A stretch of 64,000 nt of DNA from Thermofilaceae archaeon (GTDB lineage Archaea; Thermoproteota; Thermoprotei; Thermofilales; Thermofilaceae). A program made the position numbers and the translations under genes. The stretch covers positions 1-64,000 of the forward strand of contig JAVYQJ010000005.1 in NCBI GenBank assembly GCA_038731975.1, read 5' to 3'. Positions within the stretch are counted from its first letter, which is position 1. Every line of letters starts with the position of its first letter. Positions 3,084-47,497 of this stretch are shown one piece after another. The notes under the pieces were generated by a model. That model was not told where the DNA came from and made no database searches. It saw only the letters and a program-made list of their open reading frames with translations.

Positions 3084-3088
3084 CGCTT

Positions 3089-20909: not shown

Positions 20910-21334
20910 GCGAGACTCTCTACGTTGTCGACGCCAGTGTTTACGCTAGCATTCTGGTTAAGGACGAGTTCTACGAGAGAGCGGTAAATTTCGTTCGGGA
21001 GTACGCGGGGCGCCTCGCAACTCTCGATTTGGCGGTCCTGGAGGCTGCGAACGCGCTATGGCGGCACACCTGCCTCCTCAGGCGAATCCCTTTAGACAGG
21101 TACGAGGCTCTAGCCCGATACTTGAAACCGCTGGTGTACGGCTCAGCGCGGCTATACGCGTCCCTCGACTTGCTCGAGAGCGCCGTACGCATCGCCTCCG
21201 ACTTCTCGATCACAGTTTACGACGCTCTTTACGTCGCGCTCGCCCAAAAGCTGGGGTGCAAGCTGGCGAGCTTTGATGAAGAGCTCAAAAAGAGGCTGGA
21301 GGGTTTCGGAGTCAGGATCGTGGAGATCCTCTAG
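20906..21334 (+). CDS. vapC: VapC-type PIN-domain ribonuclease toxin
   Basis: This 142-residue PIN domain has acidic residues at the usual places: LYVVDASVYASI (first Asp), AVLEAANALWRH (Glu) and FSITVYDALYVALA (Asp), followed by KLASFDEEL. PIN toxins cut tRNA, rRNA or mRNA when freed from antitoxin. It follows vapB in one operon. The GTG or TTG-type start overlaps vapB by 4 bases. Its stop codon overlaps that of the convergent acetamidase gene. Confidence 0.85.
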   Translation: MSETLYVVDASVYASILVKDEFYERAVNFVREYAGRLATLDLAVLEAANALWRHTCLLRRIPLDRYEALARYLKPLVYGSARLYASLDLLESAVRIASDFSITVYDALYVALAQKLGCKLASFDEELKKRLEGFGVRIVEIL

Positions 21335-22251
21335 TGCCCGCTGGAACGCGCGAAGCTCTCGAGGAGCCTCGTCGCGGGTACCACCTCCTTCGGGACTCTG
21401 ACCCTCACTGTCTTGCGCGGATCCACGACCTGGCTGATCTCGAAGTCGAGCGCCATGCTCGCGAGCATGTACGCGTCGTACCAGTCCAAGTTCAAAGCCC
21501 TTGAGAGCGCGCCCACGGCCTCCTCGACCGCCAGCTTGAGAGCGTTCTCCAAGCCCTCCGCCGAGATTATCAGGTAGGTGGCATCCCGAGTTTCAACCAT
21601 GGGCCACTTCGGGGCTAGCCCGCGCAGAACACCGATTCTAGCTAGAACCTTGCCGCTGACTTCGCAGGCCGCCACGCAAACTTCACCGTCGCCCATCACG
21701 GCGTGAAGGTCGCCGATGCCAAGCAACCCTCCCTCGTACTCCACGGGCAGGTAGACCGTCGAGCCCTCACCGATCAGGCGGGTATCCAGGTTTCCGCCGT
21801 GCCTCCCCGGCACACCCGTCGGTGCTCTCTCGCTGGAGGCAGTGCCTATCACACCGATCATCTTCCTCGCCTTGAGGGTTAGGCCCAAGAATTCTACCCT
21901 GTCTTCGTAGACCCTGCAGATCCTCGTCCTGGCCTCCCTAGTCAAGTGGGGGAGGGCCCCTTCGCCGGGTGCCGTCACGACGACCCCCTTCCCGCCCAGC
22001 TCGATGCTCAGGATCTTGACGGCCAACGCGTCCCCCGGTGTGGTGCCCTCCACGTATAGAGGGCCCGTCGCAGGGTTCACACGGTTCCAGTCGATGCTTG
22101 CCACCGTTTGCTCCTCGCTCACGATCTGGCCTCCTAGCGCGTCCAGGCACTCGAACTCTACCAAGTCTCCCGGCCTAGCACGAGCAGCGGGCGGGATGTC
22201 GGGGTCGAACCTGTAGAAGACCCTGCTCGCGTCGAGTCTAACCAGCCCCAC
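21331..22251 (-). CDS. Acetamidase/formamidase family protein
   Basis: This 306-residue protein shows the FmdA/AmdA pattern: DPDIPPAARARPGDLVEFECLDALGGQI, INWxxVNPATGPLYVEGTTPGDALAVKILSIELG (here SIDWNRVNPATGP), a proline/Gly-rich GVPGRHGGNLDTRLIGEGSTVYLPV, and GIGDLHAVMGDGEVC. These enzymes hydrolyse short-chain amides to ammonia and acid. The metal ligands His and Asp in GDLHAVMGDGE are kept. The start is GTG 22251. It stands alone, convergent with vapC. Confidence 0.88.
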   Translation of the reverse strand: MGLVRLDASRVFYRFDPDIPPAARARPGDLVEFECLDALGGQIVSEEQTVASIDWNRVNPATGPLYVEGTTPGDALAVKILSIELGGKGVVVTAPGEGALPHLTREARTRICRVYEDRVEFLGLTLKARKMIGVIGTASSERAPTGVPGRHGGNLDTRLIGEGSTVYLPVEYEGGLLGIGDLHAVMGDGEVCVAACEVSGKVLARIGVLRGLAPKWPMVETRDATYLIISAEGLENALKLAVEEAVGALSRALNLDWYDAYMLASMALDFEISQVVDPRKTVRVRVPKEVVPATRLLESFARSSGH

Positions 22252-29122: not shown

Positions 29123-30499
29123 GTGGCTGGCTACGAGCTTGCAGTCTTCCTCGTCGGCTCTCCCAGCTTCACCTTCCAATCCGCGGCCTCCTCCCTCGCG
29201 AGGGCTCTAGAGGCGTTCCCTATCGGCGAGTGCGTGGCCTTCTACAGCGCTTTCGCGAAGCGGGATGCGGAGAGGGTTTCCCGGTTCGTCAAAAAGCTCT
29301 TCGACGTCGATCTGGAGCTCCGCCAGATGTCCCGGGACCTGGGGGAAGCGCTGAACACGTTTCAAAGCTTCCTCTCGCGCGGTAAAGCTCTAGCTGTGCC
29401 AACCTCCGGCTCCCTCGTGGGGGCAGTCGCTCTCACGCTGGCCTCCGCGAGAACGGGGGCGGACGTTGGGCACGTCCTCTTCCCCTTCGGCCCATGGACC
29501 GGCTTCTTCTACCCCTACGTCCCCCGGTACCTGCAGCCGATGCGGGTGCTAGGGGATCCACCAGAGCCCGCGAGACGCGCCTTCAGCAGGGACGGGGCTG
29601 TGGAGTACCTGGAGGAGGAAGCCCCCTTTCCCACCCGGCTCCTCAAGAGGATCGCCAGCCTCTGCGTCGACTTGAACCTCTCACTCCCCCAAACGTGGGT
29701 TAACGACTACTCCACCCCGAAGCTCGCGCTCGAGCTCGTTGAAGCCGTCGAGGGGGACGAGCTGTCGAAGACCCTCTACCTAAGTACGACCGCTGGATTG
29801 GTACCGGTCTGCGAGCTGGCCAGGCTGCCGGTCAAAGGCGAGGCGCCGACGGCAAGGGTTAGGAAGAGCATCAGCGTCCACCCGCCGCCCGACCGGAGGC
29901 TCTTCGAGGATTTCGCAGCGGAGGCCCTATCCGCCATAGCCTGGGGCGAGCCCCGCTGCAGGGAGGTTGGGTGGTTGTACAGGTTGGTTGGCTTCGAGAT
30001 TCTCGACTTGGGGCAGGATGAGCGGTACTTAATAGACACGAATGTGATTTACTCTGGTGTCCACAACGTCGTACGGCTGCTGGGACCCCGGATCCACGTC
30101 CCCTACTGCGTCCACGCTGAGGTGCTCAACAGGGTGGCCGAGAGCAGGAAGGCCTGCGAGAGACTGCTCGCCGAAGCCCTCCTCATGGCCTACGAGGTGG
30201 TCGAAGCTTTCGCGAGCAAGGTGCCCAGCACGCAGTACAAGTGCGACATCTCGATACCCTCGATCGATCCGGAGCTCATAAAGGATCTGACCGTGCTCAC
30301 CGCCGATAAGCGGGCCTACGCGCTCTGGAGGAAGCTGGCCATCAGCAGGTACACGAACGTTAAGCTGATGGATGACGGCATGTTCCGACCGGCTAGCGAG
30401 GGCGAATCGCACTTCGCCTTGATACAGCTGGCCGCGATCCTCTGCGAGCTCGCCCTGCAGCACCGACCCGGCGCTCGTCGCCAGCCGTCAACGAAGTAG
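29123..30499 (+). CDS. CARF-like sensor domain fused to a PIN nuclease domain
   Basis: The protein has 458 residues. The N-terminal 170 or so have a Rossmann layout like CRISPR-associated CARF domains: ELAVFLVGSPSFTFQSAASSL opens it, and LAVPTSGSLVGAVALTLASARTGADVGHVL matches the second conserved loop and helix. Residues about 300-440 are a PIN-like nuclease: Asp305 (YLIDTNVIYSG), Glu333 (HAEVLNRV) and Asp395 (LTADKRAYALW) are the likely metal ligands. CARF domains bind cyclic oligoadenylate and switch on the attached nuclease. It lies 1.6 kb from the first CRISPR array. No cas gene is nearby, so the CRISPR link is inference. GTG 29123 fits a leaderless start. Confidence 0.6.
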   Translation: MAGYELAVFLVGSPSFTFQSAASSLARALEAFPIGECVAFYSAFAKRDAERVSRFVKKLFDVDLELRQMSRDLGEALNTFQSFLSRGKALAVPTSGSLVGAVALTLASARTGADVGHVLFPFGPWTGFFYPYVPRYLQPMRVLGDPPEPARRAFSRDGAVEYLEEEAPFPTRLLKRIASLCVDLNLSLPQTWVNDYSTPKLALELVEAVEGDELSKTLYLSTTAGLVPVCELARLPVKGEAPTARVRKSISVHPPPDRRLFEDFAAEALSAIAWGEPRCREVGWLYRLVGFEILDLGQDERYLIDTNVIYSGVHNVVRLLGPRIHVPYCVHAEVLNRVAESRKACERLLAEALLMAYEVVEAFASKVPSTQYKCDISIPSIDPELIKDLTVLTADKRAYALWRKLAISRYTNVKLMDDGMFRPASEGESHFALIQLAAILCELALQHRPGARRQPSTK

Positions 30500-30596: not shown

Positions 30597-31532
30597 TTAC
30601 GCTCTACCGTCGCCTCTAGCCCTCTTCAGCCTCAGCTTGATGATGAGAGCATCGAGGATCGCCCAGGCGGCAAAGCCCGCTAAACCCAGACCGGTGTAGA
30701 GCTCTCTCGCCTCTAGCGGCAGCCCCGTGGCGACGACCGTGAGGCCCCACAGCGCGTTCACGGCCCCGTGGAGCGAGGCGGCGGGGAGCACGCTGTCCGC
30801 TGCTTCAACTAGGAGCATGTGTGGGATTGATAGGAGCGTGGTGAAAACGGGGAAGAGGATGAACCCACCGAGGAGCCGGTTGGAGCCGTAGTTGTGGCCG
30901 AGCAGCATTGTGGCTGACGCGTGCCACAAGCCCCACGCGACGCCAATCGCTACAACGCCCCTGGCCGTGAGCCTCCTTTCGAGCAGGTCGAACATGTAGC
31001 CCCTCCACCCGAGCTCCTCGCCGAGCGCGAAAGCGGCGTTCACCGAGATAGCCGCGAAGTAGCCCAGCAGGAGCTGCTGGAACGCAACGAGGGGGGCCAG
31101 TTCCTCCGCCAGCCCTGCGGCTCGCAGTTGGCTCGCAATGAGCTCCACGTAGGCGTTAAAATCGAAGAGCCCGAAGGGCGCGGCGATCAGCACGTAGACT
31201 CCCAAAGCGAGGTAGATTAGAAGGGGGGCTGAGAGGTAGCACAGCAGGGAACGTTTCGAAACCCTAAGCCACCGCTTCAGGCAACCTAGTAGGCTTTCAC
31301 GGCCGATCACCGCAGAGAGTAGCGCGGCAGCCGTCACAGACCACATCCTCGCGAAGCCCCACACCATGGTTACCAAGGCTGTCCGGGGATCAGAGGAGCC
31401 CGCACCACCCCTCTCAAGCGTCACGAAGGCCGCCAGATCGATCGTCAGGGCGAAGAGGTAGGCGAACACCAGGAAAGCGAAGAGCCTTCTCCGGGCTTCA
31501 GACACGGATGGGCACTCCCTCTTACTCTTCAA
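30597..31532 (-). CDS. CPBP-family (CAAX/Abi) intramembrane metalloprotease
   Basis: The protein has 311 residues and eight or so membrane segments. The CPBP motifs are present: motif 1 LGEELGWRGYMFDLLERR (EExxxR), motif 2 GVAWGLWHASATML (HxxxN-like His) and motif 3 SLHGAVNALWG. The Glu and His residues form the metal site. In archaea these proteases may process prenylated or bacteriocin-like proteins. Its TTG start at 31532 lies at the very edge of the duplicated CRISPR upstream sequence, so its promoter is probably inside that duplication. An in-frame GTG at 31505 is an alternative start. Confidence 0.85.
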   Translation of the reverse strand: MKSKRECPSVSEARRRLFAFLVFAYLFALTIDLAAFVTLERGGAGSSDPRTALVTMVWGFARMWSVTAAALLSAVIGRESLLGCLKRWLRVSKRSLLCYLSAPLLIYLALGVYVLIAAPFGLFDFNAYVELIASQLRAAGLAEELAPLVAFQQLLLGYFAAISVNAAFALGEELGWRGYMFDLLERRLTARGVVAIGVAWGLWHASATMLLGHNYGSNRLLGGFILFPVFTTLLSIPHMLLVEAADSVLPAASLHGAVNALWGLTVVATGLPLEARELYTGLGLAGFAAWAILDALIIKLRLKRARGDGRA

Positions 31533-31537: not shown

Positions 31538-32137
31538 GTACGGAGAAGCTGATCGTCGCGTCGCTGAACCACGCTCCGCCGACGAGCGGGGAAACTCAAC
31601 GCCCGTTAACGCCCGTGTGATTCCGCATCCTCAGCGGTGACATACGCTCTGCAAGCAGCCTCGCAGCTGCCGTTAGCAATCGCCACCAGTTTCAACTGCT
31701 TCCAAGGCCCTCTCGACCCCAACCCTAATAACCACCCGCTCAACGCCCGATACCCGCCCACCCCATCCAACGGTCTCGAACCAGGCCGACTAAAGCCTCG
31801 CAACCGCTCCGCACGCCGGCTTAAAACGCAACCCTTAGACAAAGCGCGAAAGCGGAAAACGTTAAGCCACTCAAGCTGCGCCACTGAATCCAAACACTGC
31901 ATACCCGAAGCAAAGCCTACCCTCTTTTCAGCGGGAATATCGTTTCCCGTTTTTTGAATTTGGATTTAAGATGAACGGTTTTTCCGCGGAAAGTACTTCT
32001 ATTCCCCGATTAACCCGGGGAACTAGATTCCCTTTCCCCGAATCCACAGATGCGCGTTGAACGCCGCACCCCGCGGAAAACAATGCTCAAAATTCAAGAA
32101 GACAAACCTTAAAAACCACCACACACAAAACCCCACG
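31538..32137 (+). promoter_or_regulatory. CRISPR array 1 leader and extended upstream copy
   Basis: This 600-bp stretch matches the reverse complement of 40340-40943 beside array 2. The array-proximal 220 bp (from about 31915) are about 95% alike and contain several palindromes, including TTTCCGCGGAAA near 31982 and TTCCCCG...CGGGGAA near 32011. The distal part is about 80% alike. CTTAAAAAC about 30 bases before the first repeat is the likely pre-crRNA promoter. Short open frames here are not kept at protein level between the copies, so I call no gene. Confidence 0.8.
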
Positions 32138-33501
32138 GAAGCAGCTAGGAAAGAATTGAAAGCTTCACGATCGCGGCGGGATCCGGCCAGGGGTCGATCG
32201 ACTGAAGCAGCTAGGAAAGAATTGAAAGTGACGAGCATGTACCTTAGCAGGGATTCCAACCCTCTGAGCAGGAAGCAGCTAGGAAAGAATTGAAAGAGTG
32301 TATAAACGCTGGGTTGCGGAGCGTGATATTCGTCAGGTTGTGAAGCAGCTAGGAAAGAATTGAAAGCCATCAGGGGGCCTCTCCAGGTTAGAAACTAAGG
32401 TGGGAAGCAGCTAGGAAAGAATTGAAAGATCAATGGTAGCGAGCCGCTAACCGTGTTCCAGACGCTGAAGCAGCTAGGAAAGAATTGAAAGATTCCTCCT
32501 TCCTCGATGATAAGAGTAACATCCTCTTGAAGCAGCTAGGAAAGAATTGAAAGAGGAGGTAGGGCCGCGGGGGCCGCGATCAAAATATCAACCCCTTTGA
32601 AGCAGCTAGGAAAGAATTGAAAGTACAACGGGGCTGCCAGGGTGCCGGCGAACCAGACGTGGAAGCAGCTAGGAAAGAATTGAAAGTGAAGGAGGAAGTG
32701 AAGCGGGAGGTGAGGGCTAGGGTTCTACCGGTGAAGCAGCTAGGAAAGAATTGAAAGTGAGCCTTCCTCGCGACCACCACCTTCTGGTTGTTGATGGCCT
32801 CGGAAGCAGCTAGGAAAGAATTGAAAGAGAGGACTGCCGCAGCAGCGGCGTCGCCGAGCCAGTTGAGCAGGAAGCAGCTAGGAAAGAATTGAAAGAGCAG
32901 CCGGGACCACCGGTCCCACAAGGGACCGGGATCCCCGGAAGCAGCTAGGAAAGAATTGAAAGGGGCCAGGGCTAAAACCTCTCTGGCCCAGAAGACGTTT
33001 AGAACCTGAAGCAGCTAGGAAAGAATTGAAAGTGGTGTAGAGCGAGACCATCAGGACGAGGAGGCTGAGGAAGCAGCTAGGAAAGAATTGAAAGGCTAGC
33101 CACCGCGCCCCACCCCCTCCCCGCCCCTCACCTCCCGAAGCAGCTAGGAAAGAATTGAAAGATGGAAGAGAAGGCGGTCACAGTCCCGTCCCGCTCGACG
33201 AAGCAGCTAGGAAAGAATTGAAAGAGTATTAGGTTGTGTATATTATCAGCGACTTCCTTCAATGTTGGAAGCAGCTAGGAAAGAATTGAAAGTTATAGGA
33301 GTAGAAGACAAATTACGTGTGGCTGGATCGATTGCCACTAGAAGCATCTAGGAAAGAATTGAAAGTTGTGAGTTAGCTGAGCTCCGCACTTCTTGCAGTA
33401 GATTTCGAAGCAGCTAGGAAAGAATTGAAAGAGATGATGGAGATGATGATAGATGATGAGCATTATTCCACTGTCAGAAGCAACTGAGAAAGAATTGAAA
33501 G
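32138..33501 (+). CRISPR. CRISPR array 1, 21 repeats
   Basis: A 25-bp repeat begins GAAGCAGCTAGG and ends AAAGAATTGAAAG. It recurs 21 times (first at 32138, 32204, 32272, 32342), with spacers of about 37-47 bases. Three features mark the leader-distal end: repeat 19 at 33341 has a G-to-T change, repeat 21 at 33477 is degenerate (GAAGCAACTGAG...), and a decayed remnant (GGGGCAGTTAGGAAAGA) sits at 33550. The leader is on the left, so transcription runs rightward. The repeat end GAATTGAAAG is shared with crenarchaeal type I arrays. No cas genes lie in the window. Confidence 0.97.
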
Positions 33502-33645
33502 GTTCGCGCTCTCAGCTTCTGTCTCCAGTTAGCGCGGTATCTCCCGGTGGGGCAGTTAGGAAAGAGGGAGGTGTACTCGCTCCCAACGTTGTCCGCTAAG
33601 CCGACTGTCGGCTCGGAGTGTCTTGGAAGGGGTTGGAAGGTGTTT
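33502..33645. repeat. Array 1 distal flank, copy of the array 2 flank
   Basis: These 144 bp are the reverse complement, at about 80% identity, of 39527-39669 beyond array 2. They include the decayed repeat remnant near 33550. No gene is seen. Confidence 0.75.
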
Positions 33646-33797
33646 CTAGGTTAACGGGGTTACGGCTGCGAGGAGTGCGCTGTGGACGGCTGCGAGCCAG
33701 GCTGCGTTCTCAGTCCAGGATTTGGTGCGGTGGAGCCACACTTGGGCTGCAGCATCGAGGGGTAGTAGTAGGGTGATGCTCACGAAGATTACGATCA
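33646..33797 (-). pseudogene. 3' fragment of a duplicated membrane hydrolase gene
   Basis: On the minus strand these 152 bases encode the last 49 residues of the alpha/beta hydrolase at 38099-39526, ending WLAAVHSALLAAVTPLT and a stop codon. Only two residues differ from the full-length copy (Thr to Ile and Leu to Ile), and five further base changes are silent. It lacks the rest of the gene and any start. Similarity stops abruptly at 33797, where the truncated peptidase begins. Confidence 0.88.
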
Positions 33798-34259
33798 GGT
33801 GGCTGGAGAACCTATTCCCACACCCATGGCAAGCGCCTCCTCCCTCGTAGAGGCGCCAACGTCGATGAAGAGGTCCTCCACAGTGATCTCCCTCGGCTGG
33901 GCCCCAGCCTGCAGGTGGGGCGGGGTCGAGCCCACCACTCCTTCAACTTCCCCCTTCCGCCCCATGACGACGACCTCATGGCCTTGCGAGGCGCTCGCGC
34001 TCACACCGCCGAGAGCGGTCACCCGCAGGAAGCCGGTGTCCTCGACGTGCCTCACTAGGAAGCCGACTTCGTCCATGTGGGCTGCCACAACCATCAGCGG
34101 CCTACCCTCCCCGAACGTAACGTAGGGGTTACCCCGGGGGTCGGTAGCTGGCTCAAGCCCCAGCTTACCCAGCTCCTCGGCGATGAGCTTCCTCACCTGG
34201 CTCTCGAAGCCCGACGGTCCCAGCGCAGCTGATAGCTTGGAGAGGAGGGTCGTGTTCAC
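33795..34259 (-). pseudogene. M42-family aminopeptidase, truncated at a rearrangement junction
   Basis: 154 residues match the N-terminal part of M42 (FrvX/tetrahedral) aminopeptidases: LSKLSAALGPSGFESQVRKLIAEEL, PLMVVAAHMDEVGFLVRHVED (metal His and Asp), VGSTPPHL and EDLFIDVGASTREEALAMGVGIGSPAT. A family member has about 350 residues; the C-terminal half with the remaining catalytic and metal residues is missing. The break falls where the duplicated hydrolase fragment starts, and the stop TGA is supplied by that foreign sequence. The promoter (CATAAAAACC, 26 bases before GTG 34259) is intact, so an inactive fragment may still be made. Confidence 0.85.
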
Positions 34260-34309
34260 GCGACCCAGTAGAACCTAGGGTTTTTATGCGCGCGCGTTAA
34301 GCGAGCACG

Positions 34310-34359
34310 GTGATGAGCTCAGCTACCTGCCGATCAGTGAGGGTTCCCGGCCTTACTGA
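34310..34359 (+). ncRNA. Possible C/D box small RNA
   Basis: A perfect box C (GTGATGA, 34310-34316) and box D (CTGA, 34356-34359) are 50 bases apart. Weaker candidates lie inside: D' (CTGC, 34327-34330) and C' (GTGAGGG, 34337-34343). TTTTTATG is centred 26 bases upstream, but the same element explains the divergent peptidase promoter. The boxes could arise by chance and no rRNA target was identified. Confidence 0.25.
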
Positions 34360-34382
34360 GGGGGTCACACCCGTCAACTTCC

Positions 34383-35834
34383 TCAACCGCTAACGCGTGG
34401 GGGCTCGGTGAGGTGCATCAGGTAGTCCGGTATCTCCTTGCCCCTCGCGATCTCCCGGAACACGAGGGCGCTAGGTCTCGCGTACCTGCGCTTGGTCGCG
34501 AAGTCGACGTGGAAGAGGCCGAACCTCATCCTGTAGCCCTGCGCCCACTCGAGGTTGTCGAAGAGGTTCCAGTGGAAGTAGCCTCTAACGTCAACCCCCT
34601 CTGACGCGGCGCGGTGGACCTGGTACAGGTGGGAGACGATGAAGTGCGACCTTAACCTGTCGCTCGCGTCGGCGATGCCGTTCTCGGTGACGTAAATGGG
34701 GAGCCGGTACCTCTTCCAGAGCCTGATGAGCACCTCGTAGAGGCCCTCCGGGTAAACCTCCCAGCCGAAGTCGCTCGCCGGGCGCCCAGCCTTCGATGAA
34801 CCGCCCGGCGGGCAGGAGTAGCCGTAGCCGGAAAGCACGGTGTAGCCGCCTGGAACCTTCCTAACGACGCTCCTCGTGTAGTAGTTCAACCCCACCCAGT
34901 CGAGCCGGCCCCTCAAGTCGTCCCTCACGCCCCCCGCGAGAACCCCCTTGACGGCAGCCTCGTACGGCCAGATGTTGCGCTCGAACCCGGCGTCGGCTGC
35001 CTCCCTATCCTCCTCCGTCAGCGGGGTCCAAGCGGCGACGGACTCGACGATCCCTACGGGCTTCTTCGAGAAGGTCTTTACGGCGTCGTAGGCCCGGGCG
35101 TGAGCCTCGGCCAAGTGCTTCCTCGCAACCTCGTAGCACTTCAAGTCGAGGTAGCCGGGCGGGAAGCCGCTCCTCACGCTCACGTAGCCCAGCATCGCCA
35201 CCACCTCCGGCTCGTTCATCGTGTACCACGCGTCCACGAGGTCGTCGAACACGCTCGCAGCGAACGCGGCGAACTTCGCGAACTCGACCACCGTCCTCTC
35301 GTCGAGCCAACCGGAGGGAGCCCGGTCGGGCCCCAACTTCCTGACCTTCACGGGGTCGTGAAGCCAGACGGGGATCGACCAGTGGAAGAGGTTGGCTATC
35401 AGGAACCCTCCGCGCCCCTTCCAGTCCTCAAAGATCTCCCTGTACCGCTTCACAGCACCCATGTCCGCCAGCTTCTCGAGCCTCCTCACGTGCTCCTGAT
35501 CTACGTTGACGGCCACCAAGCCATCCCTGCTCCGCTCGACGGGAACCTCGACCTCGAAAGTCGGTTTGGGGAAGATCCGCGCCCACTCAATCGTGAACCA
35601 CGCAGCGTCCATCCCCAGCCAGACAGCCCTCTCGTTATCCTCCCTGAAGAGGTGCCAGTAGCCGGGGCCGTCCTCCGGCCGGTCCCCGCTCACGATGCCC
35701 GCGGCGATGTTCTCCGGGTCGTGAAGCCAGAGGACCCAGTCGCTGACGAACTCGGGGCCGGGGAGGCCCATCTCGTGCTGGACGCCGACCGTGCTGAACC
35801 CGAACCTGAAGCCCCTATCGAACTTGCAGCCCAT
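34383..35834 (-). CDS. Glycoside hydrolase family 1 beta-glycosidase
   Basis: This 483-residue enzyme is like the Sulfolobus and Pyrococcus beta-glycosidases. The acid/base Glu is in YTMNEPEVVAML, the nucleophile Glu in IYVTENGIADAS, and substrate-binding residues in FHWSIPVWLHDP and GYFHWNLFDNLEWAQGYRMRFGLFHVDF. It removes beta-linked glucose or galactose from oligosaccharides in the cytoplasm. The start is ATG 35834, 20 bases after the coiled-coil gene's stop on the same strand. It sits in the 5.6-kb segment between the two inverted CRISPR loci. Confidence 0.95.
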   Translation of the reverse strand: MGCKFDRGFRFGFSTVGVQHEMGLPGPEFVSDWVLWLHDPENIAAGIVSGDRPEDGPGYWHLFREDNERAVWLGMDAAWFTIEWARIFPKPTFEVEVPVERSRDGLVAVNVDQEHVRRLEKLADMGAVKRYREIFEDWKGRGGFLIANLFHWSIPVWLHDPVKVRKLGPDRAPSGWLDERTVVEFAKFAAFAASVFDDLVDAWYTMNEPEVVAMLGYVSVRSGFPPGYLDLKCYEVARKHLAEAHARAYDAVKTFSKKPVGIVESVAAWTPLTEEDREAADAGFERNIWPYEAAVKGVLAGGVRDDLRGRLDWVGLNYYTRSVVRKVPGGYTVLSGYGYSCPPGGSSKAGRPASDFGWEVYPEGLYEVLIRLWKRYRLPIYVTENGIADASDRLRSHFIVSHLYQVHRAASEGVDVRGYFHWNLFDNLEWAQGYRMRFGLFHVDFATKRRYARPSALVFREIARGKEIPDYLMHLTEPPRVSG

Positions 35835-35854
35835 GTGGGCCCTCGCTACTGCGG

Positions 35855-36520
35855 TTATTTCTGCTTACCGCCCCTCAGGCGCTCCGCGATCTCAGCCGCC
35901 CTGATGAAAAGCCTGATCCTCTCGATCTCCTGCCGTAAGTCTTGGAGCTCCGAGGCTTTAGCAGCGTACGTGGACTTCAGCTGCTCCAGCTGCTTCTTCA
36001 ACGCAGCCCTCCGCCTCCTCAACCTCACAAGCTCCTCCTGCAGCTCCGCGATGCGCAGCTTCAGCTTCTCCCTCTCAGTCCTCTCCTCCAGCCTCCTCCT
36101 GCTAGCCTCGCTTATGCTCGCCTCAACGGCCTTGAGCCGGCTCTCCAGCGCAGCGTACTCCCTCATCTTCGACCTGAGCTCCTCCTGCCTCGGCTCACCC
36201 CTATCGATCCTATCGAGCAGCTCCCTGATCTCTCGGCGCAGGCTGGTAACCCTCTCCTGAAGGCTTCTCCTCTCCTCCCAGAGCTTTTTCACGTCAACTC
36301 CCCCCTCCTCCCGCACAGCGGCCATCCTCCCCTTAAGCTCGCGCAGCTCCGCCTCAAGCCTCGCGATATCCTCGCGGAGCTTCCTCCTCTCCTCGCTCAA
36401 GGCATCTATCTTCGCCTTCAGCTCCCCAACCTCCCCCACGGCCTTCCTCATCTTCGAGTCCAGCTCAGCCAACCTCCTCCTCAGCTGCGCTGGGTCAGAC
36501 TCCACGGCGTAGCGGGCCAT
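35855..36520 (-). CDS. Coiled-coil protein, unknown function
   Basis: The protein is about 221 residues of almost uninterrupted charged heptad sequence (LRRRLAELDSKMRKAVGEVG..., REIRELLDRIDRG, LQDLRQEIERIRLF), so a long coiled coil of roughly 180 residues. One break near residues 115-130 (DRGEPRQEEL) could be a hinge. Similar proteins in archaea are annotated as phosphoserine phosphatase-like or coiled-coil proteins (COG1340 type), but nothing here proves a role. I prefer ATG 36520, since the preceding 16 in-frame residues do not continue the coil. It may be co-transcribed with the GH1 gene. Confidence 0.6.
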   Translation of the reverse strand: MARYAVESDPAQLRRRLAELDSKMRKAVGEVGELKAKIDALSEERRKLREDIARLEAELRELKGRMAAVREEGGVDVKKLWEERRSLQERVTSLRREIRELLDRIDRGEPRQEELRSKMREYAALESRLKAVEASISEASRRRLEERTEREKLKLRIAELQEELVRLRRRRAALKKQLEQLKSTYAAKASELQDLRQEIERIRLFIRAAEIAERLRGGKQK

Positions 36521-36741
36521 TTCTAGCCTAAAATTGGTATCCCAGCTCTTTAACCTCGAACCCTCCATCCGCGTCGAGTGCGCCGAGCTGCGGCGGTTCA
36601 GCCGGGACAGCTGTGCCGCGCGGCTTGGAGCTGGTGAACCCCGGAGCGCTGCTCTCGCTTAACGGTGAAGTTTATAGAGTATATAGATGTAAATAGAGAA
36701 TAGTTCTTATATACCTGATTGTAGTAAACATAGGTTTAAGC

Positions 36742-38013
36742 ATGCTGCCCCTAGTCCCAGTGTCGGTCGACATCCAGTTCGTGTTCAAGGTCGCTCTCAG
36801 CTTCCTATCGGGAGCGCTGATAGGGTTGGAGAGGGAGAGAGCGAAATCCCACGAGGCGCCGGGAGTCAGAAGCGTCGGCTTCCTCTCCGTGCTCGGCTGC
36901 CTGTCCGCAGCTCTCCCCGGTAGCGTGGCAACCGAACCGTGGCTCCCGCTGCTGGCTTCAGCCTCTCTCGCGGCCATGGTTGTCTCAGTCGTTGGCGTCT
37001 ACACTTACCGGAAGCTGGTGATCAGCGGGGAGAGCGGGATCACAACCCCCCTCGCGCTGGCTGTCGCCTACTCCTCCGGCCTGCTGATCGGCTCCGGGAT
37101 GCTCGTCGAAGGGGTGGCCCTCTGCTTCATGGCGAGCCTGGCGCTGGCCGCGAAGCTGAGCATTGAGAGGGTCGTCAGGGGCGTCACCTACAGGGAGCTC
37201 CTCCCCCTCTTCGAGCTGGGCGTGATAGCCTTCCTGATCGGCCCCCTCCTGCCCTTCGAGCTGACCGACCCGTTCCTCAACGCCGTCAGCGTCGGCTCCC
37301 TCTACATATTCTTCGTCACGGTGCTGGTGATCTCCTACATAGGCTACGTTGCGGTCAGGCTGGGCGGCTCTCGGTCCATCGACTTCGTCTCCTTCTTCGG
37401 CGGGCTCGCCAACAGCGAGGCAACGGTCGTGAGCGCCTGCAGGCTGGGCGGTGAGGGGGCAGCTGTCAGGTCCTCCCTGCTGGCGAACGCGGCAATGCTG
37501 GCGAGAAACGCGGCTCTCGCAACCCTGCTATCGCACTTGTCGCGGAGGGTGGAGCTCAACCTCCTCGCAATCGGGCTGCTCGGCTACTCCCTCTCGATCC
37601 TCCTGGCCTACACGCTGTCAAAGCTCCTGCCGAGCCCGGGGGAGCTCAGCATCGAGGTTCCCCCATTGAGCTTCAGCCTGGCGGCGAGGGCTACAGCCCT
37701 CTTCGCGCTCTCATCGATGATCAGCGCGGCGGCCACGCTCGTGCTAGGCGCTCCCGGCGCGCTGCTCGCATCGGCTCTCAGCGGCTTCGCCAGCTCAGCG
37801 GCAGTGATCTTCACCTCGATGAGCTTGCTCGCTGGGAACTACGTCTCACCATCGACGGCGATCGTATCGGCGCTGATCGCCTCAGCGGCCGCCTCGATCA
37901 ACAAGGCCTTCTACGTGGCACCCATCAGCAAGAGGAGGGCCGTGAAGCTCATCCCAGTCAACCTCGCCGTAGCCACACCCCTCCTGGCCACCGCCATCCT
38001 GCTGCAGCTGTAG
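36742..38013 (+). CDS. MgtC/DUF4010-family membrane protein
   Basis: The protein has 423 residues and about twelve membrane segments. The N-terminus has the MgtC motif ALIGLERERAKSHEAPGVRSVGFLSVLG; the C-terminal part, with FFGGLANSEATVVS and SALSGFASSAAVIFT, matches DUF4010. Such proteins are linked to magnesium homeostasis or ion balance, but transport has not been shown. ATG 36742 follows CTTATATACC by about 30 bases. It is divergent from the coiled-coil gene. Confidence 0.85.
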   Translation: MLPLVPVSVDIQFVFKVALSFLSGALIGLERERAKSHEAPGVRSVGFLSVLGCLSAALPGSVATEPWLPLLASASLAAMVVSVVGVYTYRKLVISGESGITTPLALAVAYSSGLLIGSGMLVEGVALCFMASLALAAKLSIERVVRGVTYRELLPLFELGVIAFLIGPLLPFELTDPFLNAVSVGSLYIFFVTVLVISYIGYVAVRLGGSRSIDFVSFFGGLANSEATVVSACRLGGEGAAVRSSLLANAAMLARNAALATLLSHLSRRVELNLLAIGLLGYSLSILLAYTLSKLLPSPGELSIEVPPLSFSLAARATALFALSSMISAAATLVLGAPGALLASALSGFASSAAVIFTSMSLLAGNYVSPSTAIVSALIASAAASINKAFYVAPISKRRAVKLIPVNLAVATPLLATAILLQL

Positions 38014-38098
38014 AAGCCCCTCCCCGATCGAGGCGGTGAACCTGGCCTGAGGCCGGGCGCGGGAAAACAGCTTAATACGATCGCTCGGACGGGGCACC

Positions 38099-39526
38099 GT
38101 GGGTAGGGCGGTCATCCTGCTCTCCGCCTTCATCGCCGCGTACGCGGGGCTGTCGCTCGGCCTGCTGCAGCTCGAGTCGGGGGTCGAAGAGCGGAGGGGC
38201 TACATCTTCGTCGACGGAGTCCCCGTCTACTACGCGGAGTGGAGCCCGAAGAGCGGCTCCACCAAAGGCGTTGCAGTGCTGCTCCACGGGCTCGGCGGGA
38301 GCCTCGAGATGATGAAGTGGCTCGGCGTGGAGCTGGCCAGGAACGGCTACAGGGCCATCGCCTACGACAACCTGGGCCACGGGAGGAGCGGCTCGAGGAT
38401 CGCTGCCTTCAACGGCACCGCGGCTTTCCCCGTCTACCAAAGGCTGCTGGAGTCGCTCGGGGTGCGGGACGAGGAGGTCACGCTGGTCGGCCACAGCATG
38501 GGCGGCTTCTTCGCGCAGGAGTTCGCGGAGAGGGATCCGAGGGTGGTGAGGGTCATCGTCGTAGCGTCCAGGCCGTACCTCGACAAACCCATCGAGCGGG
38601 TCGCGGTCTTCGCCGCCCTCGACGAGATCTTCACCGTGACCAGCGCCGAAGGCTGGACGGTGGTAATCCTGCCCCACGACGACCACTTGACCGTGCTCTA
38701 CAACCCGGCGCTGGCGGACATAGTGCTGTCGAGGCTCGAGGGGGACGGCTACGAGAACCGCGCCCCGCAGCGCTTGACCCTAACGCTGGCGAGAAGCGCC
38801 TCCGCCCTAGCCGCTACGCTCGCGGCCGTCAGCCTGCTCGCCCCCCGCTTGAGGAAGCCTCAGGCGCAGCCCCCGGGCAGCCTGCCGCTGGCCAAGCTAG
38901 CCGCAGCCTTCGCCCTGGCCGCGCCGCTAGCCTTCCCGCTCTACCTACTCATGGCTCCAGCCGTATCGCTGATCGCCGCCTATGTCCTCGCCGTGCTCTA
39001 CACTCAGGCTCTCGCCTTAACCCTGGTCCAGCGGCCCCAGCCACGCTTCAGCCCAGCGCTGGTAAGGGGCCTGCCGAGGCTGGCAGCCTCAAGCTCCGCG
39101 CTGGCGCTGATCGTCTACGCCGGCCTGCACGAGGCCCTCCAACCCTTCTTCAACGTGGAGCCGAGCCCGCAGAGAGCCCCCCTCATGGCCGCGATCCTAG
39201 CCCTCTCGCTTCTACCGTGCACCACCTTCGAGCCGCTCGCGAGGCTCAAGCTGGCCAACCTACCACCGCTGCGCGGGCTAGCGGTCGTCATCGCCCTCCG
39301 GGCGGCCAGCTTCCTCTCCGCCTACGCCACCGCGAGGCTGCTACTGGGGCCGCACGGCCTCTCCGGATACCTGCTGATCGTAACCTTCGTGAGCCTCACC
39401 CTACTACTACCCCTCGACGCTGCAGCCCAAGTGTGGCTCCACCGCACCAAATCCTGGACCGAGAACGCAGCCTGGCTCGCAGCCGTCCACAGCGCACTCC
39501 TCGCAGCCGTAACCCCCCTAACATAG
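38099..39526 (+). CDS. Alpha/beta hydrolase with C-terminal membrane domain
   Basis: The protein has 475 residues. An N-terminal hydrophobic helix is followed by an alpha/beta hydrolase domain: oxyanion loop VLLHGLGGSLEMM, nucleophile elbow LVGHSMGGFFAQEF (Ser), and a distal LPHDDHLTVLYN that may supply His. About seven membrane segments fill residues 235-475. It probably acts as an esterase or lipase on membrane-associated substrates. TATA-like TTAATA at 38073 gives a leaderless GTG 38099. The stop is 143 bases from array 2. Its last 49 codons are duplicated beyond array 1. Confidence 0.78.
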   Translation: MGRAVILLSAFIAAYAGLSLGLLQLESGVEERRGYIFVDGVPVYYAEWSPKSGSTKGVAVLLHGLGGSLEMMKWLGVELARNGYRAIAYDNLGHGRSGSRIAAFNGTAAFPVYQRLLESLGVRDEEVTLVGHSMGGFFAQEFAERDPRVVRVIVVASRPYLDKPIERVAVFAALDEIFTVTSAEGWTVVILPHDDHLTVLYNPALADIVLSRLEGDGYENRAPQRLTLTLARSASALAATLAAVSLLAPRLRKPQAQPPGSLPLAKLAAAFALAAPLAFPLYLLMAPAVSLIAAYVLAVLYTQALALTLVQRPQPRFSPALVRGLPRLAASSSALALIVYAGLHEALQPFFNVEPSPQRAPLMAAILALSLLPCTTFEPLARLKLANLPPLRGLAVVIALRAASFLSAYATARLLLGPHGLSGYLLIVTFVSLTLLLPLDAAAQVWLHRTKSWTENAAWLAAVHSALLAAVTPLT

Positions 39527-39669
39527 AAGCGCCTTCCAATCCCTTCCAAGATACTTCGAGCTGACAGTCAGCTTAGCGGACAACGTGGGGGTGAGTACAC
39601 TTTCTTCTCTTCTAACTGCCTCACCGGGAGATAGCGCGCTGGCGGGAGATAGAGGCTGAAAGCGCGGAC
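39527..39669. repeat. Array 2 distal flank (partner of 33502-33645)
   Basis: This flank between the hydrolase stop and the last repeat of array 2 matches the inverted copy beyond array 1 at about 80%. It may carry a decayed terminal repeat (TCTTCTAACTGCCTCACC near 39606). No gene is seen. Confidence 0.7.
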
Positions 39670-40339
39670 CTTTCAATTCTTTCCTAGCTGCTCCACGGGA
39701 ATAAGACCCCTGGCCCCCGGGAGATGGTGCTAACCAGGGCTTACAAGATCCCGCTGCCCCTTTCAATTCTTTCCTAGCTGTCCCGGTTATAGTGATTATA
39801 AAGTAGTAGCGTATGAGCTAGAGAGGAGACTTTCAATTCTTTCCTAGCTGCTTCTCCCGTATTCCACACACTGGGTGGACAGTGTGATCAATGTGGCTCG
39901 CTTTCAATTCTTTCCCTAGCTGCCTCGTGCGGATCTCGCACCAGCTGCCCCCCGAAGATCTCTTCGCTTTCAATTCTTTCCTAGCTGCTCCTAGTCTCCA
40001 ATCTCGAGAGGCCCCCCGACGGGGGGCACGGGATCGCCTTTGCCTTTCAATTCTTTCCCAGCTGCTTCCTTCATGTTTACGCTTGGAGGGTCTAGTTCCA
40101 CGAGCAGCTTCTTTCAATTCTTTCCTAGCTGCCTCGGATGATGGGGAGCAGCTCTGCGGCGGCGACGATGAGGGTGACTTTCAATTCTTTCCTAGCTGCC
40201 TCGAGATATGTTGTAGAAAGTGCGGCACACAGCTAACGTATAAACTTTCAATTCTTTCCTAGCTGCTTCTTGAAAGAGAGGGCACAGCAGTTGAGGCAGA
40301 CTGCAGAACAGCAGCTTTCAATTCTTTCCTAGCTGCTTC
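39670..40339 (-). CRISPR. CRISPR array 2, 10 repeats, opposite orientation to array 1
   Basis: Ten repeats begin CTTTCAATTCTTTCC on the plus strand (39670, 39760, 39830, 39901, 39967, 40044, 40111, 40178, 40245, 40315), so the array reads leftward from its leader at 40340. The repeat is the same as in array 1 except at its 5' end, where GAAG, GAGG and GGAG all occur. Repeat 4 (39901) carries a one-base insertion. Spacers are about 40-65 bases and none looked the same as an array 1 spacer. Confidence 0.97.
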
Positions 40340-40943
40340 CGTGGGGGTTTTTCGTGTGGTGGTTTTTAAGGTTTGTCTTCTTGAACCTTTGAGCATTGTT
40401 TTCCGCGGGGTGCGGCGTTCAGCGCGCATCTGTGGATTCGGGGAAAGGGAATCTAGTTCCCCGGGTTAATCGGGGAATAGAGAAACTTTCCGCGGAAAAA
40501 CCGTTCACCTTAAATCCAAATTCAAAAAACGGGAAACGAGGTTCCCGCTGGAAAGAGGGTGGACTCTGCTTCCGGTATGCAGTGTCTGGATTCTGTGGCG
40601 CGCTCGAGTGGCCTAGTTGGTTTCCGTTTTCGCGCGCTTTTCAGGGGTAACGCTTTGAGCCGGCATGCGCAGCGGTTGGAGGCTTTTGGCTGGTCTGGCC
40701 CGCGGCCGTAGGACGGAGGTGGGTGGGATTCGGGCGTTGAGCGGGCGTGGCCGTGAGGGTGGGGATCGAGAGGGCCTCGGCAGCTGTTGATACCGGGCGC
40801 CCGCCGACAGCTGCTAAGAGGCTGCTTGCAGAGTGCAAAGCACCGCTGAGGATGCGGAATCACATAGGCGTTAGCTGGCGTTGCGTTTCCCCGCTCGTCG
40901 GCAGAGCGTGGTTCAGCTACGCGATGATAAGCTTGCTCTGTAC
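40340..40943 (-). promoter_or_regulatory. CRISPR array 2 leader and extended upstream copy
   Basis: This is the inverted copy of 31538-32137. The 220 bp next to the array are about 95% alike, including TTTCCGCGGAAA and the CCCCG/CGGGG palindromes. The distal 370 bp are about 80% alike. A TATA-like sequence sits about 30 bases before the first repeat (GTTTTTAAGG near 40367 on the plus strand). No gene is called here. Confidence 0.8.
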
Positions 40944-43669: not shown

Positions 43670-45247
43670 CTATTTGTGCTGGATCTCGGAGCCTTCGGGT
43701 ACCCCCCACCCTCCGCCTCCGGGGGTTTCTACGATGACTTCATCGCCGGCCTCCAGGTCGGTTGTGAACTTGCTCGGCATCTCCAGCACCCTTCCGTCCC
43801 GTTTCTTGATCGTGACTCTGCCTGGCGCCCCCGGTTCCCCTCCCTGGAGCCCGTAGGGGCCTCTTCTGAAGCGGTCGGCCAGTATCGAGAGCCTGCAGGG
43901 TTTCAGGGCGATGAAGGATCTCACGATGCCGTCCCCGCCCCTGTACCTACCCCTCCCTCCGCTCCCCTCTCTAATCCTGTAGGCGGTGTAGAGGATCGGG
44001 TAGCTCCTCTCGGCGACCTCTATCGGCGTGTTCAGCGTGTTGGTCATGTTGACGTGGACCCCGCTCACCCCGTCCCTGCAGGGCCTGGCTCCGGTGCCGC
44101 CGCCGACGGTCTCGTAGTAGGCCCAGTAGCCGCCCTCGCTCACACCGCCGAGCATTACGTTCATCATCGTCCCCGAGCCCGCGGCCGGCACCCTCTCGGG
44201 CACAGCCTCCGCCAGGGCCCGGAGAACCACGTCGGCCACCCTCTGGCTCGTCTCGAGGTTCCCGCCCGAAACGGGGGCTGGCTTGCGCGGGTTGAGCAGG
44301 GAGCCCTCCGGCGCGTACACCTCGACGAGGCTGTAGAAGCCCTCGTTCGTCGGGATCTCACCGCCCATCACCGCTCTAACCGCGAAGCTCACTGCGGCGT
44401 ACGTAACCCCGAACACAGCGTTGAGGGGGGCTTCCACCTGGCTGGAGGTGCCTGTGAAGTCCACGCTGACCCCGCCCCCGCGGATCTCGACTCGCGCCCT
44501 TATCGCTAGGTCCTCCTCACCCAGCTCGACAAAATCCTCGGCCTCGTACACCCCGCCCCTCCAACCGGAGATGCGCTTCGCGGCAAGGGCCCTCGCGTAC
44601 TCGATCGACTCGGACCAGGCTTCGAGGACTCGGCTCGAGCCGTACCTCCCCATGAGCTCCAGCACCCTCTTCACCCCCAGCTGCACCACAGCGGCTTGCG
44701 CTCGGAGGTCGCACGCGACGATCCGGGGCGTCTTGCTGTTGGCCGCTATCATCTCCAGCAGGTCGCGGTCGATCGACCCCCTTCTGACCAGCTTCACGGG
44801 CGGCACGATGAAGCCCTCCTCGTAGAGCGTCCTAGCCGCTGGGTTGATGCTGCCCGGGGCGGGGCCGCCGACGTCGACGTGGTGCGCCTTGCAGGCCACG
44901 TACGCCACGACCTCGCCTCCGCTGACGACGGGGGCGACGACCGTAACATCGTTCAGGTGGGTACCCGAAATGTACGGGTCGTTGAGTACCAGAGCGTCAC
45001 CCTCCTCCAGCTCGACGCCGCTCCCCCTGAGCCACTCCAGCACGTTTCGTACGCAGACCCTGAAGGAGCCGAGGTGGACCGGGATGTGCTCCGCTTGAGC
45101 GACGATCCTCCCCTCCCCGTCGGCCACGGCGCAGCTCAGATCAACCCGCTCCCTGATGTTCGGGGAAAGCGCCGACCGCTTCAGCGCGACCCCCATCTCC
45201 TCCGCGATGAAGACCGTGGCCTTGTGGATGAGCTCCCACGACGGCAT
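43670..45247 (-). CDS. hyuB: Hydantoinase B/oxoprolinase-family protein
   Basis: This 525-residue HyuB-type subunit has the features SWELIHKATVFIAEEMGVALKRSALSPNIRERVDLSCAV, ALVLNDPYISGTHLNDVTVVAPV, HHVDVGGPAPGS and GGDGIVRSFIAL. It acts with HyuA to open 5-membered imide or lactam rings (hydantoins, 5-oxoproline, acetone-carboxylase-like substrates) with ATP. The exact substrate is unknown. Its start lies 1 base after the HyuA stop, so the two are coupled in one operon. Confidence 0.9.
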   Translation of the reverse strand: MPSWELIHKATVFIAEEMGVALKRSALSPNIRERVDLSCAVADGEGRIVAQAEHIPVHLGSFRVCVRNVLEWLRGSGVELEEGDALVLNDPYISGTHLNDVTVVAPVVSGGEVVAYVACKAHHVDVGGPAPGSINPAARTLYEEGFIVPPVKLVRRGSIDRDLLEMIAANSKTPRIVACDLRAQAAVVQLGVKRVLELMGRYGSSRVLEAWSESIEYARALAAKRISGWRGGVYEAEDFVELGEEDLAIRARVEIRGGGVSVDFTGTSSQVEAPLNAVFGVTYAAVSFAVRAVMGGEIPTNEGFYSLVEVYAPEGSLLNPRKPAPVSGGNLETSQRVADVVLRALAEAVPERVPAAGSGTMMNVMLGGVSEGGYWAYYETVGGGTGARPCRDGVSGVHVNMTNTLNTPIEVAERSYPILYTAYRIREGSGGRGRYRGGDGIVRSFIALKPCRLSILADRFRRGPYGLQGGEPGAPGRVTIKKRDGRVLEMPSKFTTDLEAGDEVIVETPGGGGWGVPEGSEIQHK

Positions 45248-45248
45248 G

Positions 45249-47228
45249 CTAGCCCACCCGAACGAGCCTCAGCTCGCCGAGGTTACCCACGCTGAACTCC
45301 CACCCTGGTGGCACCACGGTCGTGGAGGAGTACTCCTCAACGATCGCCGGCCCCTCGCCCACGAAGCCGACCGGAAGGCTCTCCCTCCTGTAAACGGGTG
45401 TCTCAACCCACCCGTCTTCAAAGAAGACCCTCCTCGAACCCGGCTTCACCGGCTCGCCCGCCGGGGGCCGCGGTAGCCCGGGCTTGGGCCTCAGCTTCAC
45501 TGCGAAGACCCTGGCCACGACGATCTCCACGTCCAACCCGAGCGTAAAGCCGAAGGTTGCCTCATGCCTCTCCTCGAAGGCTCGCTTCACGGATTCGAGG
45601 CTTGCGGGCCTTCCCACGGGTACCGTGAGCTCCCATCCCTGACCCCTGTACCTGACGTCGGCGCTCCTAACGAAGTAATCGGCGTGGCCGAGCCTCTCCG
45701 TCAACGACTCCTCCATCCTCCTGTACGTCTCCTCCAGCGCCTCAGGGTCGGGGTAGGCGCTTCTCGCCTCAAACCTCCAGTCCGCGGCGAGCAAACCCCA
45801 CGCGCTGAACAGGCCGGGGTGGGGTGGCACAAGCACCTCTCTGATCCCCAGCTCCTCCGCCAGAAAGGCTGCGAACTGCGGTCCAGCGCCCCCGAAGGCT
45901 ACGAGGACGTGGTCCGCCGGGTCGAAGCCCCTCTCCACGGTGACGAGCCTCACACCCCTCGCCATCTCCAGGTTGATCAGCTCCAAGGCCCTGGCAGCCA
46001 CATCCGCCGGGTCGCCGAGCCTGGAGAGGGCTGTCTCCGCGGCTCTCCTGTCCAAGCGCAGGCTGCCGTCGAGCAGGCTTTCACCGAGCCTACCCAGCAC
46101 GAGGTTCGCGTCCGTGACCGTCGGCTCGCGGCCGCCCCTACCGTAGCAGGCCGGCCCGGGCTCCGAACCCGCGCTTACGGGGCCCACCGCTAAGGCTCCC
46201 GCCTCATCCCTCCAGATGATGGTTCCTCCCCCAGCGGACACCTCGGCCAAGTCGATGAACGGGAACCTGACCGGGTGGCCGGAGCCCTTGACTACGCGGC
46301 CGTGGTGTGACTCGCCTCCCACCTCGTACTCCGTCGTCACCTCCACCTCGCCGTTCGCCACGACGGCCGCCTTCGCCGTCGTGCCGCCCATGTCGAAGCT
46401 GATGACCCTGCCGAGGCCCAGCATCCTGGCCAGCTCCGCCGCGGCTACGGCACCGGCCGCGGGCCCGCTCTCGATGATCTGCACCGGCCTCTCTGCCGCC
46501 TCCCTCGAGTCCACAAGCCCGCCGCTGCTCGACATCAGGTAGAGCCCCCTGACTCCTATCCCCTCCAGCTCACCCGCCAGGCTGGTGAGGTACCTCGAGA
46601 CTAGAGGTTGCAGCACCGCGTTGACGAGGGTCGTTGAAGCCCTCTCGTACTCCCGCGGCTCCGGGGCGACGCGGTGGGACAGCGAGACGTACCGAACGTG
46701 CTTCGACAGGATCCTACCAGTCAGCTCCTCATGCTCGGGGCGCAGGTAGGAGTGGAGGAGGCAGACGGCTGCGCTCTCGACGCCCAGCTCCCTCAGCTTC
46801 AGGCCCAGCTCCTCGACCTCGGCCTGATTCAAAGGCTTCAGAACTCTGCCGCTCGCGTCAACCCTTTCGTCGAGCTCGAAGCGCAGCTCCCTCGGGGCTA
46901 GCGGCCTAGGCTTCTCGAAGAAGAGGTCGTAGAGGCGGGGCCGATTCTGCCTCCCAATCTCGATGATATCCCTGAAACCCTTCGTTGTGACGAAGGCGGT
47001 ACGGGGGGGCTCCAACCCCCTCTGCCCCCTCAGCGCGTTCGTGGCGAGCGTCGTGGCGTGGACGACCTCCCTCACCGGGCTTCTTGCGGCGATCCTTCTC
47101 AACCCCTCGACAACCGCTCTCTCAGGCTCACGCGGCGTGGAGAGGACCTTGAGGAAACCCAACTGCCCGTCGCGCGATAGGTACAGGAGGTCGGTGAAGG
47201 TCCCGCCGACATCGACGGCGGCAAGCAT
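45249..47228 (-). CDS. hyuA: Hydantoinase A/oxoprolinase-family protein
   Basis: The protein is about 659 residues, with an N-terminal actin-like ATPase domain (AAVDVGGTFTDLLYL), HATTLATNALRGQRG, IISFDMGGTTAKAAVV (second phosphate motif) and VSAGGGTIIW. It pairs with HyuB in an ATP-dependent amidohydrolase. ATG 47228 is the start: TTTTATAGG lies 26 bases upstream, and the conserved domain begins here. An in-frame frame extending to 47345 adds 39 residues that would include the promoter. It heads the operon. Confidence 0.9.
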   Translation of the reverse strand: MLAAVDVGGTFTDLLYLSRDGQLGFLKVLSTPREPERAVVEGLRRIAARSPVREVVHATTLATNALRGQRGLEPPRTAFVTTKGFRDIIEIGRQNRPRLYDLFFEKPRPLAPRELRFELDERVDASGRVLKPLNQAEVEELGLKLRELGVESAAVCLLHSYLRPEHEELTGRILSKHVRYVSLSHRVAPEPREYERASTTLVNAVLQPLVSRYLTSLAGELEGIGVRGLYLMSSSGGLVDSREAAERPVQIIESGPAAGAVAAAELARMLGLGRVISFDMGGTTAKAAVVANGEVEVTTEYEVGGESHHGRVVKGSGHPVRFPFIDLAEVSAGGGTIIWRDEAGALAVGPVSAGSEPGPACYGRGGREPTVTDANLVLGRLGESLLDGSLRLDRRAAETALSRLGDPADVAARALELINLEMARGVRLVTVERGFDPADHVLVAFGGAGPQFAAFLAEELGIREVLVPPHPGLFSAWGLLAADWRFEARSAYPDPEALEETYRRMEESLTERLGHADYFVRSADVRYRGQGWELTVPVGRPASLESVKRAFEERHEATFGFTLGLDVEIVVARVFAVKLRPKPGLPRPPAGEPVKPGSRRVFFEDGWVETPVYRRESLPVGFVGEGPAIVEEYSSTTVVPPGWEFSVGNLGELRLVRVG

Positions 47229-47497
47229 CGAGGGTTCGCTAACCCAGCCTATAAAAGCTGAGTGCAGGATCAAGAGGGTGAGCACCGCGCTGCGAAGGTT
47301 ATACCTGACCCGTCGACGAGCCTGCGCCAAAACCCTGCGCCGCAACTAAGAGGCGACCTTGGTCGCTACATCCGGGTAGGCCTGAGCGCGGCTGAAGCTT
47401 CAGGGGGTGCAGGACCCACTTGCCCAATGCGGAAACAAAGTTTCGGGTTTTACCAGTTGCGCCTAATCCGCCTATCAAAAAACCTAGACCTGTAGAT

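What the first reader, a model, noticed from the sequence alone, without database searches (positions are those of the whole stretch)
31538..40943. Two CRISPR loci as a 6-kb spaced inverted duplication
Leader, array and the sequence beyond the array all recur in reverse orientation: 31538-33797 pairs with 39385-40943. The arrays differ in spacers and length (21 and 10 repeats). So a whole CRISPR locus, including about 285 bp of the neighbouring hydrolase end, was duplicated and inverted, and each copy has since collected its own spacers. The arrays are transcribed toward each other. Such an arrangement can also flip the 5.6-kb segment between them by recombination.
Basis: seen in the sequence. 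Interest (0 to 1): 0.75.

Follow-up and report, generated by a model that had tools for sequence, protein, structure and literature searches.

The report
Duplicated, inverted CRISPR locus in archaeon
In a heat-loving archaeon a complete CRISPR memory locus was copied in reverse about 6 kb away, cutting a peptidase gene in half, and the two copies then filled with different virus records; a related genome still shows the site before the copy landed.

Summary
Two CRISPR loci (21 and 10 repeats) lie in inverted orientation in a Thermofilaceae genome. They share about 590 bp before the first repeat, the array's distal end, and the last 150 bp of a hydrolase gene. A third array with the same repeat shares only the ~190-bp leader, so the pair is a true segmental duplication. 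The direction can be read. Array 2 sits beside the intact hydrolase. Array 1 carries only that gene's last 50 codons and sits where codons 155 onward of an M42 peptidase should be; a same-genus genome has GH1-M42-CPBP uninterrupted there. So array 1 is the copy.

The shared sequence 'beyond the array' is mostly fossil array: two decayed repeats at array spacing (0 of 5000 shuffles) flanking two common ancient spacers. The 20 and 9 later spacers are unshared by descent. Two spacer pairs encode the same peptides at non-matching positions, so they look like separate acquisitions from related elements.

Inversion of the 5.6-kb middle is possible; the flipped form would rebuild a full-length hydrolase. 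Nothing here shows that it happens: the present order matches the relative. The homogenised tail suggests recombination between the copies at least once. A clear case of a known kind; moderate interest.

The parts
31538..31869 (+). Copy 1, sequence upstream of the leader (78% to 40610-40934, minus strand); not shared with the third array on contig C12
31870..32137 (+). Leader of array 1, with a TATA-like CTTAAAAACC about 25 bp before the first repeat; the ~190 bp next to the array are 95-96% identical to the leader of the third array and 76% to a leader in another genus (G014)
32138..33501 (+). CRISPR array 1: 21 repeats GAAGCAGCTAGGAAAGAATTGAAAG, 20 spacers of 37-48 bp; last repeat degenerate
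33502..33648 (+). Trailer 1 = fossil end of the ancestral array: decayed repeats at 33549 and 33615 flanking two ancient spacers shared with array 2 (84% identity)
33649..33798 (-). Headless copy of the last 50 codons of the alpha/beta hydrolase gene (7 differences in 150 bp; open, no stop)
33795..34259 (-). Truncated M42 peptidase gene (Pfam positions 5-114 of 292), cut exactly at the duplication boundary
34383..35834 (-). GH1 glycosidase, syntenic with G002 contig C55
35855..36568 (-). Coiled-coil protein in the segment between the copies
36742..38013 (+). MgtC/DUF4010 membrane protein in the segment between the copies
38099..39526 (+). Intact alpha/beta hydrolase (475 aa), donor of the duplicated tail
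39374..39523 (+). Donor copy of the duplicated hydrolase tail
39524..39669 (-). Trailer 2 = fossil array end with decayed repeats at 39622 and 39557
39670..40339 (-). CRISPR array 2: 10 repeats, 9 spacers
40340..40609 (-). Leader of array 2
40610..40943 (-). Copy 2, sequence upstream of the leader
30597..31532 (-). CPBP (Rce1-like) protease; in the related genome it directly follows the intact M42 gene

Best explanation
An ancestral CRISPR locus next to the 3' end of a hydrolase gene (now array 2) was copied once, with its upstream region, leader, array and the last ~150 bp of the hydrolase. The copy was inserted in opposite orientation about 6 kb away, into an M42-CPBP gene pair, replacing the M42 gene from about codon 155 to its end (inferred: a template-switch or break-repair copy; after this much divergence the junctions no longer show the mechanism). 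Both leaders kept their promoter and spacer-insertion elements, so both arrays grew independently, presumably served in trans by the genome's cas genes (Cas1 on contig C16, Cmr III-B and Cas6 on C12). The inherited leader-distal units decayed into a shared trailer. Afterwards the two copies recombined at least once (gene conversion or inversion), which kept the hydrolase tail of the headless copy nearly identical. Shown: duplication, direction, target gene, shared fossil spacers, independent later spacers. Inferred: copying mechanism, use in trans, later recombination.
For: Inverted homology of leader, upstream and trailer. A third array shares only ~190 bp of leader, so shared leaders alone do not produce this pattern. 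The M42 gene stops exactly at 33798; relatives mostly have full-length open frames of about 344-387 aa; no separate C-terminal part was found in the genome, only an intact paralogue on C9. G002 contig C55 carries GH1-M42-CPBP-21331-homologue-CARF/PIN uninterrupted. The hydrolase is intact beside array 2 and only a tail is present beside array 1. Two decayed repeats at 65-73 bp spacing in both trailers, 0 of 5000 shuffles each. No shared intact spacers, but two pairs of spacers coding the same peptide at non-collinear positions. Hydrolase tail 7/150 differences against 23/146 in the trailer (p = 0.002) and 72/322 upstream (p = 3e-7).
Against: The pre-insertion site is seen in only one same-genus genome; the other genus members searched do not show the gene pair in one piece. 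The genome is a draft in 87 contigs. In the same relative (G002) the hydrolase lies inverted with respect to its neighbours and has no array, so the history on the array-2 side is not fully resolved. The 7 tail differences (5 silent, 2 not) are too few to separate conversion from selection.
Confidence: 0.85

Rival explanations
1. The pair is an active inversion switch: recombination between the inverted copies flips 33798-39374 back and forth, and both hydrolase tails are kept because each serves in one orientation.
For: Arms of 217 bp at 93% with exact runs of 56 bp (hydrolase tail) and 59 bp (leader). The flipped form rebuilds a full-length 475-aa hydrolase with two residue changes. The tail is conserved beyond neighbouring non-coding sequence. 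Large recombination events at CRISPR loci are credited in Thermotoga (PMC5637354, citing DeBoy et al. 2006).
Against: The present order M42'-GH1 next to array 1 and CPBP matches the relative. No second isomer was seen, and inversion of this block changes no visible promoter. Gene conversion explains the tail equally well.
Confidence: 0.15
2. The two loci arose independently (mobile CRISPR modules or convergent leader evolution) rather than by duplication.
For: Leaders are conserved across arrays and even between genera (76% to G014); no intact spacers are shared by descent.
Against: The shared upstream region, fossil spacers and a chromosomal gene tail; the third array lacks all of these.
Confidence: 0.04
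3. Assembly artefact: one locus assembled twice, or a misjoin at the repeats.
For: Draft genome. Arrays in the related G002 bin show odd orientation changes and run into virus-like genes.
Against: The copies differ by 5-22% in different parts and hold different spacers; the gene order on both sides of array 1 matches a relative assembled separately.
Confidence: 0.04

Closest known systems
Multiple CRISPR arrays with a common leader and repeat in one genome (e.g. six Pyrobaculum species, PMC3396285)
   Same: Several arrays share the repeat and a conserved leader promoter (AAAAACTTAAAAA there, CAAACCTTAAAAACC here)
   Different: Here flanking chromosomal sequence and fossil spacers are shared too, so one array can be shown to be a copy of another
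Salmonella/E. coli CRISPR1 and CRISPR2 (PMC2886076)
   Same: Two arrays with similar leaders (in Salmonella), for which duplication was considered
   Different: There duplication was doubted because no spacers were shared and the loci are not contiguous; here shared fossil spacers and a gene tail support it
Thermotogales chromosomal inversions credited to CRISPR loci (DeBoy et al. 2006, cited in PMC5637354)
   Same: CRISPR loci as sites of possible inversion
   Different: There rearrangements are reported between strains; here only the potential is shown
Sulfolobus paired arrays around the adaptation cas genes (from own knowledge)
   Same: Oppositely oriented arrays with related leaders a few kb apart
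   Different: No cas genes were found between the arrays here

Membership tests
CRISPR array (class 1, archaeal type) | Regular direct repeats with unique spacers | tested here: met
   21 and 10 copies of a 25-bp repeat, spacers of mostly 37-52 bp (one of 65 bp)
CRISPR array (class 1, archaeal type) | Leader with promoter at one end, degenerate repeat at the other | tested here: met
   Leader conserved in four arrays including another genus; degenerate last repeat in array 1 and decayed repeats in both trailers
CRISPR array (class 1, archaeal type) | cas genes in the genome | tested here: met
   Cmr III-B and Cas6 on contig C12, Cas1 on C16; none matched among the ten genes near the arrays that were scanned, apart from a CARF/PIN-like gene
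CRISPR array (class 1, archaeal type) | Spacer acquisition and crRNA production | not testable with these tools
   Needs RNA-seq or challenge experiments
Segmental (whole-locus) duplication | Homology extends past the functional element into unrelated flanking sequence | tested here: met
   Hydrolase tail and upstream region
Segmental (whole-locus) duplication | Pre-duplication site visible in a relative | tested here: met
   G002 contig C55, M42-CPBP uninterrupted; one relative only
Invertible DNA segment (phase-variation switch) | Both orientations coexist or alternate between relatives | tested here: inconclusive
   Only one orientation seen; no reads available and no second genome of the species held
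Invertible DNA segment (phase-variation switch) | Dedicated invertase and specific sites | not tested
   No recombinase was recognised among the genes between the copies, but the genome was not searched for one

The most novel reading that the evidence does not exclude
The inverted CRISPR pair works as an exchange device: crossovers between the facing arrays flip the segment between them, swap old spacer tails between the two leaders, and exchange the C-terminal end of the hydrolase, so that immune memory and a neighbouring gene are reshuffled together.
Probability: 0.06. Interest if true: 0.75.

Novelty: new member of a known kind. Interest (0 to 1): 0.4.

Why it matters
How genomes gain extra CRISPR arrays is seldom traceable, because spacers turn over and erase shared history. 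Here a trapped gene tail, fossil spacers and a pre-insertion site in a relative give donor, copy and target, so array duplication and later independent acquisition can be followed in one case. It also gives a natural test of recombination between facing arrays.

Tried and rejected
Rfam: nothing in the window. Shared intact spacers: none by descent. Viral scan for the shared peptide VSNLERPPDG: no match, and among 61 genomes only the two spacers matched. Viral scan for the zinc-ribbon spacer motif: four contigs, generic-looking motif, not taken further. Inversion of orientation between relatives: G002 has the two blocks on separate contigs, so not decidable, except that the array-1 side agrees with the present order. 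DeBoy et al. 2006 is not held, so that precedent rests on the citing paper. Assembly artefact considered and rejected on divergence and synteny.

Full report
OBSERVATION. Self-alignment finds 31538-32164 against 40943-40313 (85.2% over 635 columns) and 33479-33798 against 39692-39374 (89.4% over 320 columns), both in inverted orientation. The arrays hold 21 and 10 repeats of GAAGCAGCTAGGAAAGAATTGAAAG. The finding is real and far beyond chance.

CONTROL WITHIN THE GENOME. The window is part of an 82.9-kb contig of a draft genome of 1.85 Mb in 87 contigs; the nearest named records are Thermofilaceae. A third array with the same repeat lies on contig C12 beside Cmr III-B genes and Cas6. Its leader is 95-96% identical over ~190 bp, but nothing further upstream and nothing in the trailer matches. 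Leader conservation is therefore probably functional; a leader in another genus is still 76% identical over ~250 bp. Only the pair in the window shares the wider flanks, so only that pair is a segmental duplication. A fourth leader-like fragment lies at the end of contig C33.

DIRECTION. The hydrolase gene at 38099-39526 is intact beside array 2. Beside array 1 only its last 50 codons exist (33649-33798, minus strand). Immediately next to that fragment an M42 peptidase gene (33795-34259, minus strand) ends after 154 residues, matching Pfam positions 5-114 of 292. Relatives have full-length M42 frames. The rest of the gene is absent from the window and no C-terminal M42 match other than an intact paralogue was found in the genome. 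In the same-genus genome G002 (contig C55; G002 appears to be the bin SKYB99, because contig C3 has the same length as the SKYB99 contig found) the order GH1, complete M42 (341 aa), CPBP, then homologues of window genes 21331-22251 and 29123-30499, is uninterrupted. In the window the same genes stand on either side of array 1. So copy 1 landed between M42 codon ~154 and the start of CPBP, removing ~570 bp. This also argues against a misassembly.

ANATOMY OF THE 'TRAILER'. The sequence between the last intact repeat and the hydrolase end holds two decayed repeats in each copy, at 33549 and 33615 and at 39622 and 39557, spaced 65-73 bp like the live array. Neither pair was matched in 5000 shuffles. 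The intervening ~47 and ~41 bp are therefore two ancestral spacers; the trailers as a whole are 84% alike between copies. The array was duplicated together with at least its oldest units, as expected if new units enter at the leader.

LATER HISTORY. None of the 20 and 9 intact spacers is shared by descent. Two pairs resemble each other: array 1 spacer 4 and array 2 spacer 5 both encode LVSNLERPPDG with only silent differences, and array 1 spacer 19 and array 2 spacer 2 both encode EI(Y/C)C(K/R)KCG(A/T)QLT. Their positions are not collinear, and the peptide of the first pair occurs in no other place in 61 genomes. I infer separate sampling of related mobile elements. The elements were not found.

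DIVERGENCE ALONG THE COPY. Identity is 78% upstream, 91% in the leader region, 84% in the fossil trailer and 95% in the hydrolase tail. The tail in copy 1 has no start and should drift like its surroundings, yet it differs at 7 of 150 sites against 23 of 146 in the trailer (p = 0.002) and 72 of 322 upstream (p = 3e-7). Five of the seven differences are silent (my reading of the codons). Recombination between the copies is the simplest account; conversion and inversion cannot be told apart here.

INVERSION. The inner arms are 217 bp at 93%, and a flip would restore a complete 475-aa hydrolase using the tail of copy 1. So the flip is mechanically plausible and harmless to the gene. The current orientation agrees with G002 on the array-1 side, and no data on the population were available. 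Precedent: CRISPR loci are credited for large chromosomal recombination events in Thermotoga (PMC5637354).

COMPARISON. In Escherichia and Salmonella two arrays with similar leaders were considered as possible duplicates and doubted for lack of shared spacers (PMC2886076). Pyrobaculum arrays share an ultra-conserved leader promoter and show repeat mixing that may reflect recombination (PMC3396285). The present locus is of that known kind, with unusually complete evidence of origin.

Noticed in passing
32367-32403 and 39992-40043: Two spacers, one in each array, encode the same peptide LVSNLERPPDG with only silent differences; no source element was found.
   Followed up: partly
33366-33406 and 40203-40244: Another pair of spacers, one in each array, encodes the same zinc-ribbon-like motif (EIxCxKCGxQLT).
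   Followed up: partly
29123-30499: CARF/PIN-like protein (PADLOC CARF_m3--CARF_PIN, E 5e-51) about 1 kb from the array 1 locus; the same gene stands in G002 where no array is present.
   Followed up: partly
L109 (G002:C16) 1-4018: Array whose repeats change orientation twice (+, -, +) and which then runs into protein-coding, virus-like sequence; a stretch near 3480 matches a spacer on G002:C20. Chimeric contig or a virus-borne array.
   Followed up: partly
L107 (G002:C20) 527-3040: Two diverging arrays (9 and about 20 repeats) on a 3.1-kb contig with coding-like sequence between them.
   Followed up: no
L021 (G000:C33) 9-104: Fourth leader-like sequence (77%) cut by a contig end; its array is probably lost in an assembly gap.
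   Followed up: no
38099-39526: Relative to the neighbouring genes at 43670-47345, the hydrolase has the opposite orientation in G002 (contig C3), where DUF4010 faces it and no array is present.
   Followed up: partly
2070-2224: 156-bp imperfect palindrome (78%) between predicted genes.
   Followed up: no
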